This document shows, one piece after another, positions 26,706 through 31,269 of a DNA stretch of 32,281 nucleotides. Location: contig CAILKE010000032.1 in the NCBI GenBank assembly GCA_903834765.1, forward strand, positions 1 through 32,281, in the 5' to 3' direction. The notes beneath the pieces were generated by a model that saw only the letters and a list, made by a program, of their open reading frames with translations, was not told where the DNA came from and did not search any database. A program made the translations under genes and the position numbers. The stretch's first letter is position 1. The number at the start of each line of letters is the position of its first letter. The stretch is from an uncultured Bacteroidota bacterium. Lineage in GTDB: Bacteria; Bacteroidota; Bacteroidia; B-17B0; Aurantibacillaceae.

Positions 26706-26778
26706 TGTCCGATGGTGTAACTGGCAACACGACTGATTTTGGTTCAGTAGAGTCTAGGTTCGAGCCCTAGTCGGACAA
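26706..26778 (+). tRNA. tRNA-Gln (anticodon TTG)
   Basis: A 73-nt cloverleaf with acceptor TGTCCGA/TCGGACA and discriminator A. The anticodon stem ACTGA/TCAGT encloses TTTTGGT (anticodon TTG), and the T arm is CTAGGTTCGAGCCCTAG. It is a single-gene unit with promoter and terminator. It marks the border between core genes and the accessory region on its right. Confidence 0.95.
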
Positions 26779-26793
26779 CAACAAAAATCAACT

Positions 26794-27172: not shown

Positions 27173-27188
27173 TAAGTAGTACTACTTA
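27173..27188. promoter_or_regulatory. 16-bp palindrome, left edge of the signalling module
   Basis: TAAGTAGTACTACTTA is a perfect palindrome. A 15/16 match (TGAGTAGTACTACTTA) occurs at 30835-30850, after the response regulator. The size and symmetry suit a dimeric HTH regulator such as the module's own NarL/LuxR-type protein. Confidence 0.6.
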
Positions 27189-27353: not shown

Positions 27354-27665
27354 ATGGCTTTTACAGGCAATGAAGCGGGACAATTCCCATTAGACACAGC
27401 AGCAGCATGGACTGCTAATTACAGAAAATCAAACCCAAATGGAATCAAAGCCCATTTTTTCGGTATGAACATTATCAACGAAGTATTAGCACAACCAGGT
27501 TGTGTTGGTATCAGGTGCTATTATGCATTAGATGAAAAAGGTGTTCAACAAATGATTATAGTTGGAGCTGATAAAGATGAAAACGATTTATACAATGGTA
27601 TCATCGCCGAAATTTCATCTCCATGCCCTCCATACTGTGGTGGTGGCAGTCCTCTATTAGGCTAA
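27354..27665 (+). CDS. 103-aa protein with Cys/Gly-rich C-terminus, unknown function
   Basis: The protein starts MAFTGNEAGQFPLDTAAAW, has a compact middle (KAHFFGMNIINEVLAQPGC, GIRCYYALDEKGVQQMIIVG) and ends in PCPPYCGGGSPLLG. I recall similar proteins of about 100 aa as unnamed in many Bacteroidota, with the same Gly-Ile-Arg-x-Tyr-Tyr core and a CPxxCG tail; no function is known to me. There is no signal peptide or membrane segment. The CPxxC pair could bind metal or form a disulfide. It is the first gene of the signalling module and is separated from the sensors by a strong hairpin, so it may be the most abundant product and a target or partner of the two-component system. Confidence 0.8.
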   Translation: MAFTGNEAGQFPLDTAAAWTANYRKSNPNGIKAHFFGMNIINEVLAQPGCVGIRCYYALDEKGVQQMIIVGADKDENDLYNGIIAEISSPCPPYCGGGSPLLG

Positions 27666-27711
27666 TAAAATATACGGAAATGGAAGTTTTAGTACATTTC
27701 CGTATATTTAC
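27643..27711 (+). repeat. 69-bp direct repeat, copy 1
   Basis: This block holds the last codons of the 103-aa gene and the hairpin. It is repeated without any mismatch that I can find at 28556-28624, 913 bases downstream. The equal length to the intergenic repeats at the left end of the window is coincidence; the sequences are unrelated. Confidence 0.95.
27668..27709 (+). terminator. Strong hairpin after the 103-aa gene, copy 1
   Basis: AAATATACGGAAATG pairs perfectly with CATTTCCGTATATTT (15 bp) around a 12-base loop. There is no long T-run beyond the arm, so it may be a partial terminator or an mRNA-stabilising end that lowers expression of the sensor genes. It ends 8 bases before the next ATG. 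Confidence 0.65.
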
Positions 27712-27717
27712 TTCATC

Positions 27718-28377
27718 ATGTATGGTAATAGTAACTTTTATATTTTTTTAGGACAAATATCTGCAGTTTCTACACTTATTCCATTTGTAACAGCCTTTAT
27801 CCGAAAAAACAATCTTTCGAAAGAATTGAAAATATTATGGTTCCTAATTATATGCTCTATTATAACTGAAATAGCAGGACTTATTTTAGCTTTTGTATAT
27901 ATAGTCAATAATGCTCATATTTTTAATATTTATGTAATAATAGAAACGCTGCTCATTTCAAGCTTTTATTACTTTGTTATTCAAAACAGAATTTGGAAAC
28001 TAATTTGTATTTTTCTAGCCATAATGTTTTCTGTCTTTGCAATTATCCAATTGTTTTTAAACCCTGTCAAAACTTTAAATAATTTAACTCTAACAACAGA
28101 ATCATTGATGGTAATTATTTTTTCAGTTATAACTTTTCATTATCTTATAAAATACCCGAAGTATAAAAATATTCTTTCTACGCCAATTTTTTGGATTAAC
28201 TCAGCCTTTTTATTATATTTTTCTGGAAACCTATTCTTACACTTGTTCAGTCATTTTTTAACGGAGTATGCACAAAAAGCATTTTTGGAGTTATGGGGAT
28301 TTCACTCAGTTTTTAATATTATTTTTTACACATTAATCAGTATAGGATTTTGGAAAACCAAGACATCGCAAATTTAA
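27718..28377 (+). CDS. 7-TM sensor-like membrane protein A
   Basis: A 219-aa protein almost entirely made of about seven hydrophobic segments, for example FLGQISAVSTLIPFVTAFI, ILWFLIICSIITEIAGLILA, IFNIYVIIETLLISSFYYF, STPIFWINSAFLLYFSGNLF and FNIIFYTLISIGFW. There is no signal peptide and no enzymatic motif. It is paralogous to the protein at 28630, with roughly half of the residues identical overall and the last twenty residues fully identical. The stop overlaps the start of a kinase-type frame by 28 bases. A membrane sensor acting with the adjacent kinase is inferred from position. Confidence 0.82.
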   Translation: MYGNSNFYIFLGQISAVSTLIPFVTAFIRKNNLSKELKILWFLIICSIITEIAGLILAFVYIVNNAHIFNIYVIIETLLISSFYYFVIQNRIWKLICIFLAIMFSVFAIIQLFLNPVKTLNNLTLTTESLMVIIFSVITFHYLIKYPKYKNILSTPIFWINSAFLLYFSGNLFLHLFSHFLTEYAQKAFLELWGFHSVFNIIFYTLISIGFWKTKTSQI

Positions 28378-28551
28378 AATTATTAATCACTATAAGCATT
28401 CTAATAACCCTATCCTTAGCAAATGCTATTATTCTATGTAAGGGTTACTATCAGCATATAATGCTCATAAAAGAAGTGAGAATTAAGCTAATGGAGCAAG
28501 AAAAACAAATTGAATTATTTAAAGCATCCGTTGAAGCAGAAGAAAAACAAA
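28315..28551 (+). repeat. About 237-bp direct repeat, copy 1
   Basis: It aligns with 29230-29466 with about 15 mismatches by hand count, roughly 94% identity. It covers the end of the sensor gene and the start of the kinase gene. The roughly 600 bases to its left are far more diverged between the two copies. Confidence 0.9.
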
Positions 28552-28556
28552 GGTAG
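28350..28556 (+). pseudogene. Truncated histidine kinase N-terminus
   Basis: A TTG-started 68-codon frame reading LENQDIANLKLLITISILIT and on to KASVEAEEKQR. It matches the first 68 residues of the full kinase at 29265: one membrane helix and the start of the coiled coil. It stops at a TAG created where the sequence jumps into a copy of the tail of the 103-aa gene. The H-box and ATPase domain are missing, so it cannot phosphorylate. It may still be translated as a small membrane peptide able to pair with the full kinase through the coiled coil, which is speculation. Confidence 0.8.
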
Positions 28557-28624
28557 TGGCAGTCCTCTATTAGGCTAATAAAATATACGGAAATGGAAGT
28601 TTTAGTACATTTCCGTATATTTAC
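28556..28624 (+). repeat. 69-bp direct repeat, copy 2
   Basis: Identical to 27643-27711. Here the coding tail of the 103-aa gene is an orphan fragment, so its perfect conservation indicates a recent duplication or gene conversion. Confidence 0.95.
28581..28622 (+). terminator. Strong hairpin, copy 2
   Basis: The same 15-bp stem and 12-base loop as at 27668-27709, now between the truncated kinase and the second sensor gene. Confidence 0.65.
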
Positions 28625-28629
28625 AATAT

Positions 28630-29292
28630 ATGGCTGATTCAATAACTTTTAACTATTTTTTTGTCTATTTATCATCATTTTCAACTTTATTTCCTTTTAT
28701 TATAGCATTCATTAGAAGAAATTATTTACAACGTGAACATAAAACTCTTTGGTTACTTGTTTCTTGTGCGATACTTACTGAAATTGGAAGTTACATCTTA
28801 ATGTACATATTCAAAACTGATCCCATTTCTCTTTTTAACTTTTACATGATACTTGAAACTATTCTTATTTCTTTGTATTATTTTTTAACTATTAACAATA
28901 AAACATTTAAGATTTTTATATCAATTTTCAATCTATTGTTTATATTATATGCAGTAATAGAATTAATTACCATTCATAGTAAAACACTAAATAATGTTTT
29001 ACTCACATATCAATCATTAATGGTTATTGCATCTTCCATAGTTACTTTTAATTCCATTATTAAAGATCAAAAACATAATAATATACTCTCAGCCTCAATT
29101 TTTTGGATAAATTCTGCTTTTCTTATTTATTTTAGTGGAAATATGTTTTTACATTTATTTGATAATTATTTGCAAGAACATGCAATGTATGCATTATACG
29201 AATTATGGGGGCTTTGGCATTCCTCATTAAATATTATTTTTTACACATTAATCAGTATAGGATTTTGGAAAACCAAGACATCGCAAATTTAA
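28630..29292 (+). CDS. 7-TM sensor-like membrane protein B
   Basis: A 220-aa paralogue of the protein at 27718 with the same seven-segment plan (LSSFSTLFPFIIAFI, LWLLVSCAILTEIGSYILM, LFNFYMILETILISLYYFL, ASIFWINSAFLIYFSGNMF, NIIFYTLISIGFW). Conserved positions include TLxPF, TEI, ETxLIS, KTLNN, SLMV and NILS-x2-IFWINSAF; loops and membrane segments 2 and 4 differ most. It directly precedes, and by 28 bases overlaps, the intact kinase frame, so translational coupling is likely. Signal unknown. Confidence 0.83.
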   Translation: MADSITFNYFFVYLSSFSTLFPFIIAFIRRNYLQREHKTLWLLVSCAILTEIGSYILMYIFKTDPISLFNFYMILETILISLYYFLTINNKTFKIFISIFNLLFILYAVIELITIHSKTLNNVLLTYQSLMVIASSIVTFNSIIKDQKHNNILSASIFWINSAFLIYFSGNMFLHLFDNYLQEHAMYALYELWGLWHSSLNIIFYTLISIGFWKTKTSQI

Positions 29293-29466
29293 AATTACTA
29301 ATCACTATAGGCATTCTAATAACCCTATTCTTAGCTACTGCTATTATTCTATTTGTGGTTTACTATCAGCGTAAAATGATCCTAAAAGAAGTGAGAATTA
29401 AGATAATGGAGCAAGAAAAACAAATTGAATTATTTAAGGCATCCGTTGAAGCAGAAGAAAAACAAA
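29230..29466 (+). repeat. About 237-bp direct repeat, copy 2
   Basis: Partner of 28315-28551. In this copy the kinase frame continues into the H-box. Confidence 0.9.
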
Positions 29467-30092
29467 AAGAAAAAATTGCCCGGAATCTTCACGACGAAAT
29501 AAACCCTTTATTAAATTCTTTAAAATTTAATTTAAGTAAGTATCGTATTAAAGCTAAAAAAAATGAATTTGACCCTGATAGTATTATTCCCGACGAAAAA
29601 ACTTTGGATAAAGCCATTGAAGGTATTCGCACAGTTTGTTATGATTTAATCCCTTCCTTTTTTATGGAGTACGGTTTAATTCCAGCACTCGAAACCTATG
29701 TGAAAAATGTTAAAGTTTTTGGAGATATTTCAGGTGAATTTGAAAGCAAAGTTATAACCGAAGAAATGGAATCATTTAGTATTCAAGAACAATTAAATAT
29801 TTACAGAGTGTGCTTGGAAATATTAAACAATCTTTTTAAGCACTCTAATTGTACATTATATAAACTTTCAATGCTGAGTTTAAATCAAACCCTTGTGTTC
29901 GAAATAACCCATAATGGTATCGGAATCACTAACGAGGAGATGAATTCCTTTACTGAAAAATCAAAAGGATTAGGTTTAAAATCATTACAAGCAAGGTTGA
30001 TTTTATTAAGAGCTAAAATTAACTATCAAAAAAACAGCAATACATCTTCAATTACATTAGTAGTTCCATTAAACACTAATATACTTCGATAA
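29265..30092 (+). CDS. Sensor histidine kinase, HisKA_3 type
   Basis: A 275-aa kinase if started at TTG 29265; an upstream ATG at 29205 would lie deep inside the sensor gene. One membrane helix (LLITIGILITLFLATAIILFV, about 10-31) is followed by a Lys/Glu-rich coiled coil. The H-box is KIARNLHDEINPLLNSLKF with the phospho-accepting His near residue 76. The ATPase domain has N-box EILNNLFKHS (near 185-194), G1 HNGIG (216-220, with His where many kinases have Asp) and G2 GLGL (near 235). The His variant is familiar to me from Bacteroidota kinases of this type. It pairs with the response regulator that starts four bases downstream. Confidence 0.93.
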   Translation: MENQDIANLKLLITIGILITLFLATAIILFVVYYQRKMILKEVRIKIMEQEKQIELFKASVEAEEKQKEKIARNLHDEINPLLNSLKFNLSKYRIKAKKNEFDPDSIIPDEKTLDKAIEGIRTVCYDLIPSFFMEYGLIPALETYVKNVKVFGDISGEFESKVITEEMESFSIQEQLNIYRVCLEILNNLFKHSNCTLYKLSMLSLNQTLVFEITHNGIGITNEEMNSFTEKSKGLGLKSLQARLILLRAKINYQKNSNTSSITLVVPLNTNILR

Positions 30093-30096
30093 AATT

Positions 30097-30750
30097 ATGA
30101 AAAAGCCAATACACATAGCTATAGTTGACGATCATGTTATTGTACGACAAGGATTAATTTCTTTATTAGCAGAATATGAAGAAGTAAATATATTATTTGA
30201 TGCCAATAATGGAAAAGAATTAATGGATAATCTTAAATCCTCAAAGCCTGATATTGTATTATTGGATATTGCTATGCCAATTATGAATGGCAAAGAGGCT
30301 TTAGAAAAAATGCAATTAAAGTACCCGAAAATAAAGGTTATTGTGATGAGTCAGTATTTTCATGACGAACATATTATTGAATTTATTAAAGCAGGTGCTT
30401 CTGCTTTTTTGCCAAAAAATTGCGATATAGATAAACTACTCGATGCAATAAATTATGTATTTGAACATGGCTATTATTATGATAACAAAATTTCAGCTGT
30501 AATGGCTTCTTTGTTAAAGAAAACACCAATCGATAATAAAGTTGTTGCTGATACAGAGTTTACCAAACAAGAAATTAAAATTATGAAGTTAGTTTGTGTC
30601 AAAAAAACAAATGCCGAAATAGCCGACGAATTACACGTTAGTATTAGAACCATTGAAAGTCATCGATACAACATTTCTAAAAAAACCAATACAACAAAAA
30701 CAATAGATCTTATAGAATATGCCACCAAAAACGGTATTTTAAATCTATAA
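30097..30750 (+). CDS. Response regulator, NarL/LuxR type
   Basis: A 217-aa DNA-binding regulator. The receiver domain has Asp11/Asp12 (IVDDH), phospho-acceptor Asp57 (IVLLDIAMP), Ser85 and Lys107 (FLPKN). The C-terminal HTH (FTKQEIKIMKLVCVKKTNAE, then IADELHVSIRTIESHRYNI) is a complete LuxR-type helix-turn-helix. All key residues are present, so it should be active. It is the last gene of the module. Palindromes of about 16 bp with shared ACTACTTA half-sites lie both before the module and just after this gene, and they are candidate binding sites. Confidence 0.96.
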   Translation: MKKPIHIAIVDDHVIVRQGLISLLAEYEEVNILFDANNGKELMDNLKSSKPDIVLLDIAMPIMNGKEALEKMQLKYPKIKVIVMSQYFHDEHIIEFIKAGASAFLPKNCDIDKLLDAINYVFEHGYYYDNKISAVMASLLKKTPIDNKVVADTEFTKQEIKIMKLVCVKKTNAEIADELHVSIRTIESHRYNISKKTNTTKTIDLIEYATKNGILNL

Positions 30751-30806: not shown

Positions 30807-30828
30807 ATCTAAGTACTACTACTTAGAT
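30807..30828. promoter_or_regulatory. Inverted repeat after the response regulator
   Basis: Nine-base arms ATCTAAGTA and TACTTAGAT surround CTAC. The right half contains ACTACTTA, the same half-site as in the 16-bp palindromes. Confidence 0.45.
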
Positions 30829-30834
30829 AAAAAT

Positions 30835-30850
30835 TGAGTAGTACTACTTA
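30835..30850. promoter_or_regulatory. 16-bp palindrome, right edge of the signalling module
   Basis: TGAGTAGTACTACTTA, one base different from 27173-27188. It ends directly before the -33 position of the TAACTTTG promoter at 30874-30881. Confidence 0.6.
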
Positions 30851-30891: not shown

Positions 30892-31269
30892 ATAGTTTTA
30901 GAAATTACTAATTTTTCTGATAATATAATTAATCAAGTTTGGCAAAAAGGAATAGCAGTTGCTGGCTATAATGTCGAAAAATTTCGTCGAGATACATGCG
31001 GTGCTTGGATGCAAAAAGATAAATATGGAACTGAAGAAAATTTAGGTTGGGAAATAGATCACGTTTACCCAGTCTCAAAAGGTGGCACTGATGATTTGGC
31101 AAATCTCAGGCCAATGAACTGGCAAAATAACCGCAGTAAAAACGAAAATTACCCATCATATAAATGCGTCATCAAATCCAAGGACAATAAAAATGTTAAG
31201 TCTGAAGAAAGTCGAACAATAAATAAATCCCTTCAAGAAACACTTAAATCAAAATATAAAATTAAATAA
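30892..31269 (+). CDS. HNH endonuclease, start codon unclear
   Basis: The HNH core is GWEIDHVYPVSKGG followed by DDLANLRPMNWQNN, a complete metal-binding H-N-H arrangement. The first ATG is at 31009, giving 86 aa. The same frame stays open upstream to 30877 and encodes FSDNIINQVWQKG, then RRDTCGAW, which looks like the normal N-terminal part of this HNH family in Bacteroidota. No ATG, GTG or TTG exists in that extension; ATA at 30892 or ATT at 30904 are the only near-cognate choices. Either a rare start is used, the start was lost, or the shorter form is real. The tail is lysine-rich. The target is unknown; the next gene begins 4 bases later. Confidence 0.62.
   Translation: MVLEITNFSDNIINQVWQKGIAVAGYNVEKFRRDTCGAWMQKDKYGTEENLGWEIDHVYPVSKGGTDDLANLRPMNWQNNRSKNENYPSYKCVIKSKDNKNVKSEESRTINKSLQETLKSKYKIK

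What the first reader, a model, noticed from the sequence alone, without database searches (positions are those of the whole stretch)
27643..29466. Mosaic duplication of a sensor cassette in front of one histidine kinase
Seen: a 69-bp block (103-aa gene tail plus hairpin) is repeated without mismatch, and a roughly 237-bp block over the sensor end and kinase start is repeated with about 15 mismatches. The about 600 bp of sensor sequence between them differ strongly, with about half of the residues identical. A simple old or recent duplication would give even divergence. Inference: sensor halves have been exchanged by recombination within conserved borders, or borders are homogenised by gene conversion. 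Crossing over between the repeats would delete one sensor and could switch which one feeds the kinase and regulator. I know of no described system of this form.
Basis: partly seen in the sequence, partly recalled or inferred. Interest (0 to 1): 0.8.

Follow-up and report, generated by a model that had tools for sequence, protein, structure and literature searches.

The report
Swappable receptor cassette, caught in tandem
A bacterium of the Bacteroidota group carries two very different versions of a membrane receptor gene side by side in front of one signalling kinase, and its relatives show that this receptor is swapped between related species while the kinase stays the same, much as cell-to-cell signalling receptors are in other bacteria.

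Summary
Copy 1 (27639-28551) and copy 2 (28552-29466) share 73 bp at the left (1 mismatch) and 240 bp at the right (16 mismatches); the ~600 bp between, most of the receptor gene, are 58% identical, and the receptor proteins 53%. Receptor synonymous sites are saturated (dS 2.3) against 0.08 in the kinase-start border, so neither even ageing nor fast protein evolution explains it.

Relatives do. The locus is a conserved four-gene operon: small 103-aa protein, 7-TM receptor, single-TM kinase, LuxR-type regulator. In three other genomes the flanks are 94-100% identical on both sides (100-bp windows), yet the receptors are 25-37% identical; in another pair the receptor is shared (85%) while kinase core and regulator are ~80%. 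Receptor and kinase+regulator trees reject each other's clades. The receptor module is an exchanged allelic cassette; the window holds two alleles in tandem. Copy 1's kinase stub is decaying, so this looks like a merodiploid remnant or second receptor, not an active switch.

The window's small protein and receptors match no Pfam or NCBIfam family. The closest known analogues are polymorphic quorum-sensing loci (comQXPA, agr). That the small protein is the ligand is inferred only.

The parts
27174..27187 (.). Perfect palindrome AAGTAGTACTACTT 180 bp upstream of the 103-aa gene; candidate binding site of the LuxR-type regulator
   Evidence: 5 places in the 3.6-Mb genome match with 0-1 mismatch and 3 are in this locus (the 2-mismatch set, 38 sites, is below the reversed control, 72). 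Motif with <=2 mismatches at -177 to -230 in 8 of 8 loci of the close clade. Regulator binding is inferred.
27354..27665 (+). Conserved 103-aa protein (C-terminal CPPxC...PL tail); candidate ligand/partner of the receptor
   Evidence: ORF; relatives in 41 of 87 family genomes and 61 loci of genome contigs; no Pfam/NCBIfam family
27639..27711 (+). Left border repeat, copy 1 (end of 103-aa gene + hairpin)
   Evidence: (D2)
27668..27709 (+). Hairpin between 103-aa gene and receptor A
   Evidence: -18.2 kcal/mol, z -6.9
27718..28377 (+). Receptor A, 219 aa, intact
28312..28551 (+). Right border repeat, copy 1 (receptor end + kinase start), decaying
28350..28556 (+). Kinase stub of copy 1: 68 codons, stops at the junction
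28552..28624 (+). Left border repeat, copy 2 (tail of the 103-aa gene + hairpin); junction at 28551/28552
28581..28622 (+). Hairpin of copy 2
   Evidence: -18.2 kcal/mol, z -6.6
28630..29292 (+). Receptor B, 220 aa, predicted 7-TM protein, next to the intact kinase
29227..29466 (+). Right border repeat, copy 2
   Evidence: D1
29265..30092 (+). Intact histidine kinase: one TM segment (read from sequence), HATPase_c, weak HisKA_3; overlaps the end of receptor B (TTG start by analogy with G037; longest ORF from 29205)
30097..30750 (+). Response regulator: receiver + LuxR-type HTH (GerE)
30811..30824 (.). Palindrome, 1 mismatch
30836..30849 (.). Palindrome, 1 mismatch

Best explanation
The locus is a conserved four-gene signalling operon whose input half (all or the last part of the small protein, 7-TM receptor, start of the kinase gene) behaves as an exchangeable allelic cassette, while its output half (kinase core and regulator) is a stable unit. 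Foreign receptor alleles enter by homologous recombination through the conserved borders. In this genome two alleles, already far apart, stand in tandem in front of one kinase: a cassette-sized duplication with a non-homologous junction, either formed between two alleles or formed from one and followed by replacement of one receptor. After that the kinase stub of copy 1 has decayed without constraint, while receptor A has stayed open. Shown: cassette exchange in relatives, tandem of two divergent receptor genes, decay of the stub. Inferred: that the receptor passes its signal to the sensor-less kinase, that the regulator binds the palindromes and feeds back on the operon, that the small protein is the receptor's partner or ligand, and that receptor A is either a spare second input or a remnant on its way out.
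For: Even divergence is excluded: dS 2.26 in the receptors against 0.08 in the kinase-start border. Relatives: G005/G037/G015c54 have regulators 100% and kinase cores 98-99% identical (dS 0.01-0.03) but receptors 25-37% identical with dS 1.9-3.2. In 100-bp windows identity is 94-100% upstream (up to 1.2 kb for G005/G037, 0.45 kb for pairs with G015c54), falls to 32-68% across the cassette and is 95-100% again from about +1100, in 3 of 3 pairs. The reverse holds for G004/G037: receptor 85%, dS 0.71, while the kinase core has dS 2.15 and the regulator is saturated. AU tests: the receptor tree rejects G005+G037+G015c54 (p 7e-39) and G005+G037 (p 2e-4), though the three have 100/100 support for kinase core+regulator; the kinase core+regulator tree rejects G004+G037 (p 1.7e-5), which has 100/100 support for the receptor. 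Two modules across 43 loci: kinase core-regulator distances correlate at 0.97; small protein-receptor partial correlation 0.40 (p 0.0005), small protein-kinase core -0.05. Copy-1 decay: 13 of 16 border differences derived there; stub differences 12 nonsynonymous to 3 synonymous, 10 to 3 without the two derived in copy 2. Recurrence: 2 of 61 loci have several receptors before one kinase, Flavobacterium beibuense (3) and Larkinella knui (2).
Against: No strain genomes of this species and no reads were available, so the order of events and the junction in the population are untested. Receptors A and B are not recovered as sisters, but their union is not rejected (p 0.229), so the origin of either is open; no donor was found. 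Most comparison genomes are metagenome assemblies by their titles. G037 is placed in another genus and its contig may be mis-binned, although the mosaic lies within single contigs. The six outgroups are not independent: three are nearly identical over the later part, and a few of the 16 calls rest on 3-to-2 or 4-to-2 majorities. Intactness of receptor A is only weak evidence for function (neutral chance 0.09-0.14 at the observed divergence, up to 0.43 at lower rates). Small protein and regulator also keep a partial correlation (0.15, p 0.014), so the small protein is not linked to the receptor alone.
Confidence: 0.78

Rival explanations
1. Old tandem duplication within the genome; receptors diverged in place while the borders were homogenised by gene conversion.
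For: Borders are alike and the receptors differ, as conversion limited to the ends would give.
Against: The right border now differs at 16 sites, 13 of them derived in copy 1, so conversion has not acted lately. Relatives with a single copy at the locus have receptors just as different behind near-identical flanks, which conversion within one genome cannot produce.
Confidence: 0.12
2. Metagenome assembly joined two strain alleles into a false tandem.
For: The locus is polymorphic; in G015 two contigs share 133 identical bases and then carry different cassettes, so mixed strains may occur in such data.
Against: The junction links kinase start to the tail of the 103-aa gene with little or no shared sequence, which an assembler is unlikely to invent from overlaps. 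The decay of copy 1's stub (10-12 nonsynonymous to 3 synonymous) needs a real non-functional copy of some age.
Confidence: 0.05
3. Programmed switch: crossing over between repeats chooses which receptor feeds the kinase.
For: Direct repeats of 73 and 240 bp flank the receptors; deletion of 913-915 bp either way is possible in principle. An HNH endonuclease gene lies downstream (31009-31269), which could in principle provoke breaks.
Against: Deletion cannot be reversed; no third receptor copy in the genome; no site-specific recombinase among the 10 window proteins scanned; frequent crossing over in the right repeat would not let one copy decay.
Confidence: 0.05
4. Fast adaptive evolution of the receptor protein after a recent duplication.
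For: Receptors differ far more than neighbouring genes.
Against: Synonymous sites are saturated in the receptors and nearly unchanged in the border.
Confidence: 0.01

Closest known systems
comQXPA quorum-sensing locus of Bacillus (PMC4008528, passages seen)
   Same: Polymorphic membrane receptor part beside a conserved kinase core (PF07730, PF02518) and a conserved regulator; four adjacent genes on one strand, one of them small
   Different: Here the receptor is a separate 7-TM protein rather than the kinase's own N-terminus; no ComQ-like isoprenyl transferase; the small protein is larger and mostly conserved; a ligand is unproven
agr of Staphylococcus (abstracts; architecture and conserved regulator recalled)
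   Same: Groups defined by polymorphism of AgrB, AgrD and AgrC
   Different: No homology tested; gene order and regulator type differ (recalled)
Rap-Phr (PMC5199041, passages seen)
   Same: Specificity shifts by horizontal transfer of diverged alleles plus transient duplication within the locus
   Different: There the signal gene is duplicated, here the receptor; a different receptor type without a kinase (recalled)
Split sensor-kinase pairs such as UhpC-UhpB (recalled; NCBIfam UhpB hit 61.9 bits, cut-off 408)
   Same: Separate membrane sensor with a kinase lacking its own sensory domain
   Different: No relation of the receptor to a known family was found in the searches made; here it is hypervariable and exchanged

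Membership tests
Two-component system with HisKA_3-type kinase and LuxR-type regulator | HATPase_c domain in the kinase | tested here: met
   35 bits, cut-off 26.4
Two-component system with HisKA_3-type kinase and LuxR-type regulator | HisKA_3 dimerisation domain | tested here: inconclusive
   15.3 bits, below cut-off 24; NCBIfam models of MctS, UhpB, LiaS and NarX hit, all below their cut-offs
Two-component system with HisKA_3-type kinase and LuxR-type regulator | Receiver plus GerE HTH regulator | tested here: met
   Response_reg 89.3 bits, GerE 45.2 bits
Polymorphic signal-receptor locus (comQXPA/agr kind) | Receptor part hypervariable and exchanged beside conserved kinase core and regulator | tested here: met
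Polymorphic signal-receptor locus (comQXPA/agr kind) | Signal precursor encoded beside the receptor and covarying with it | tested here: inconclusive
   Small protein covaries with receptor (partial r 0.40, p 0.0005) and all or the last third of its gene is exchanged with it, but no processing, export or signalling shown; by reading, the window protein has no signal peptide
Polymorphic signal-receptor locus (comQXPA/agr kind) | Group-specific activation by a secreted signal | not testable with these tools
   needs experiment
comQXPA proper | ComQ isoprenyl transferase gene | tested here: not met
   None among the operon's ORFs; no such Pfam hit in the 10 window proteins scanned
7-TM rhodopsin/GPCR-like fold | Seven-helix bundle with significant structural match | tested here: inconclusive
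   Model pLDDT 94 with seven long helices; best Foldseek E 0.051, proteorhodopsin; VIA Z 13.6, rmsd 4.2 over 212 residues, LYCHOS, borderline for helical bundles

The most novel reading that the evidence does not exclude
A polymorphic cell-to-cell signalling (kin-type) locus of Bacteroidota: the small CPPxC protein is the signal or its precursor, a separate GPCR-shaped 7-TM protein is its receptor acting through a sensor-less kinase, and strains change signalling group by swapping the receptor cassette through tandem two-receptor intermediates like this one.
Probability: 0.3. Interest if true: 0.87.

Novelty: new variant of a known kind. Interest (0 to 1): 0.64.

Why it matters
It exposes an operon found across Bacteroidota and in some Gemmatimonadota MAGs whose small protein and receptor match no curated family reliably here, and shows that its receptor is exchanged like the specificity genes of known quorum-sensing loci. 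If the small protein is the ligand, this would be a polymorphic receptor-kinase communication system in a phylum for which the few searches made here brought no description, with a separate 7-TM receptor. The tandem offers a view of an intermediate in allele replacement.

Tried and rejected
Donor in the same genome: none; only the two receptor copies match at E <= 0.001. Donor among relatives: with receptor B as query, 100 relatives and all 20 genomes of the genus gave nothing closer than 48-49%; receptor A was compared only with loci that B or the small protein brought in, best 47%. Known families: no Pfam, NCBIfam or PADLOC family for the window's small protein or receptors. Among relatives, single weak Pfam hits only: Ceramidase, PTS_EIIC_2 and DUF3149 in one member each of 36 receptors (best E 0.0033), HisK_sensor in 1 of 41 small proteins (E 0.0013; member not identified; 10 small proteins scanned alone, 7 of them from that alignment, gave nothing at 0.1); NCBIfam none for 36 receptors. 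Solved structures by sequence: none for the receptor profile, chance-level hits for the small protein. Fold search of the small protein (pLDDT 87.6): best E 0.38, no usable match. Mobile context: no relative of the small protein in plasmids, phages or viral contigs at the thresholds used, although integrase, RteC and HTH_17 genes lie upstream in G015 (Pfam) and near-identical ORFs in G005. Tandem in G015: contig C5 ends inside a G037-like receptor and contig C54 begins with 133 bp identical to C5; mixed strains or a tandem, I could not tell. Palindrome: at 2 mismatches the genome-wide count (38) is below the reversed control (72), so only the 0-1 mismatch sites are used. Papers: seven searches listed no description of this operon, but the terms were narrow and the library lacks most subscription journals; passages of PMC5199041 and PMC4008528 were seen, otherwise only listings and starts of abstracts.
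Full report
Observation. The two units are real and sharply mosaic. Copy 1 runs 27639-28551 and copy 2 28552-29466. Identity is 72 of 73 in the left block (end of the 103-aa gene and hairpin), 349 of 599 in the middle, and 224 of 240 in the right block (receptor end and kinase start); 60-bp windows show sharp borders. The hairpin folds at -18.2 kcal/mol in both copies (z -6.9, -6.6). Copy 1's kinase is cut after 68 codons at the junction. Between receptors A and B dS is 2.26; in the kinase-start part of the right border it is 0.08. Sequence that diverged in place for equal time would not do this.

What the locus is. The order is 103-aa protein, ~220-aa membrane protein, histidine kinase, response regulator. 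The kinase has HATPase_c, a weak HisKA_3 match below its cut-off and, by reading its sequence, one TM segment and no sensory domain; the regulator is receiver plus GerE. Receptor B is predicted as seven long helices at pLDDT 94, with rhodopsin- or GPCR-like best matches that are only borderline (Foldseek E 0.051; Z 13.6, rmsd 4.2, 212 residues). The window's small protein and receptors hit no Pfam or NCBIfam family. The same order is found widely: of the 61 loci that the small protein brought in from genome contigs, 42 show all four genes in order under the criteria; the other 19 are cut by contig ends, fall outside the spacing criteria or lack a hit to one of my models. The 42 include Pontibacter, Flavobacterium, Larkinella, Niastella and two Gemmatimonadales MAGs. 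Within the window's own family 41 of 87 genomes have the small protein; of 100 genomes in the relatives set 25 have the receptor and 26 the small protein (own genome included).

The receptor is an exchanged cassette. Five close relatives have one complete cassette each (G004, G005, G006, G013, G037); G006 also has three distant receptor relatives elsewhere (24-26%), and G015 has two partial cassettes on contig ends. G005, G037 and G015c54 are identical in the regulator protein and 98-99% in the kinase core, yet their receptors are 37% (G005/G037), 29% (G005/G015c54) and 25% (G037/G015c54) identical. At DNA level, 100-bp windows are 94-100% upstream (up to 1.2 kb for G005/G037, 0.45 kb where G015c54's contig ends), 32-68% over the cassette, and 95-100% again from about +1100 after the small gene's start in all three pairs; the left border lies at the start of the small gene when G015c54 is involved, and in its last third for G005/G037. 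Synonymous rates agree: 0.01-0.03 in kinase core and regulator, 1.9-3.2 in receptors. The opposite mosaic is seen in G004/G037: receptor 85% with dS 0.71, kinase core dS 2.15, regulator saturated. G015c54's receptor lies with those of three genomes of other genera, G058, G031 and G023 (100/100; genus codes, tree), and like theirs it starts at the stop codon of the small gene, without the hairpin; the kinase core+regulator tree rejects that grouping (p 9e-10). AU tests further reject the G005+G037+G015c54 clade for the receptor (p 7e-39) and for the small protein (p 0.004), G005+G037 for the receptor (p 2e-4), and G004+G037 for kinase core+regulator (p 1.7e-5). So the input module moves separately from the output module.

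Two modules. Over 43 loci (42 plus the window), distances of kinase core and regulator correlate at 0.97; small protein and receptor keep a partial correlation of 0.40 (p 0.0005) after removing both, whereas small protein and kinase core keep none (-0.05); small protein and regulator keep 0.15 (p 0.014), receptor and kinase core 0.10 (p 0.049). In one distant member the small protein begins with a hydrophobic stretch ending in a cysteine, like a lipoprotein signal (L146, my reading). These points make the small protein a plausible partner or ligand of the receptor, but they do not show signalling.

History of the tandem. With six outgroups, 13 of the 16 differences in the right border are derived in copy 1 and 3 in copy 2; three of the outgroups are nearly identical over the later part and a few calls are narrow majorities. 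In the kinase stub the 15 differences are 12 nonsynonymous to 3 synonymous, or 10 to 3 without the two derived in copy 2, as expected without constraint and unlike the intact gene between species (about 12 to 30, rounded for G000B/G004; Fisher p 0.0008 and 0.003). So the borders were nearly identical when the tandem arose, the receptors were already far apart, and the stub has been decaying since. Receptor A is still open; under neutrality at the same rate this would happen in 9-14% of simulations, a weak hint that it is kept. By inference, deletion between the repeats would restore a single-receptor operon with B (left repeats) or A (right repeats), so the tandem can resolve by loss but is not a switch. 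Tandem receptors recur: Flavobacterium beibuense has three receptors (43-58% identical) and Larkinella knui two small protein-receptor pairs (receptors 27%) before one kinase, 2 of 61 loci.

Regulation. The palindrome AAGTAGTACTACTT occurs with 0-1 mismatch at five places in the genome, three of them here: upstream of the 103-aa gene and twice after the regulator. With up to 2 mismatches it is found at -177 to -230 in all 8 loci of the close clade, counting both G015 contigs (overall 17 of 83 loci examined, with several contigs held twice, so it is a feature of this clade, not of the whole family). Binding by the regulator and feedback on the operon are inferred.

Known or new. The kind is known: receptor polymorphism beside a conserved kinase core and regulator is described for comQXPA (passages of PMC4008528) and, by groups of AgrB, AgrD and AgrC, for agr (abstracts); transient duplication with horizontal transfer is described for Rap-Phr (passages of PMC5199041). 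New here are the protein family, the separate 7-TM receptor, the phylum, and a receptor rather than a signal gene in tandem. Seven literature searches listed no description of this operon; they were narrow and the library lacks most subscription journals.

Limits.

Noticed in passing
26706-26779: tRNA-Gln lies just upstream of the cassette, and small genes follow the cassette up to the contig end; this may be a genomic-island insertion site.
   Followed up: partly
31009-31269; L076:4141-4515; L079:16205-16579: An HNH endonuclease gene lies downstream of the cassette in the window and in G037 (Pfam), and a near-identical ORF in G015; whether it bears on cassette exchange is unknown.
   Followed up: no
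L123:5980-9817 (Flavobacterium beibuense): One small-protein gene followed by three tandem receptor genes, one kinase and one regulator.
   Followed up: partly
L145:4488-8677 (Larkinella knui): Two small protein-receptor pairs in tandem before one kinase-regulator pair.
   Followed up: partly
L028:1172-2166 (G056): Small protein-receptor pair with no kinase or regulator found in the 1.5 kb behind it: perhaps an orphan input module. A near copy on another contig (L044) has a receptor ORF of only 114 aa.
   Followed up: no
L080:14976-18941 and L077:5564-9528: Tyrosine integrase, RteC, HTH_17 and ATPase-like genes directly upstream of the cassette in G015 and near-identical ORFs in G005, so the operon may ride on a mobilisable element there.
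   Followed up: partly
L076:4904-5563, L077:12630-13286: A second, paralogous LuxR-type regulator downstream; sequence matching the window's palindrome region lies just in front of it.
   Followed up: partly
L079 end / L080 end (G015): Two contigs share 133 identical bases and then carry different cassettes: mixed strains or another tandem.
   Followed up: partly
L146:5836-6336: A small-protein relative with an N-terminal lipoprotein-like signal, suggesting that the domain can act outside the cytoplasm.
   Followed up: no
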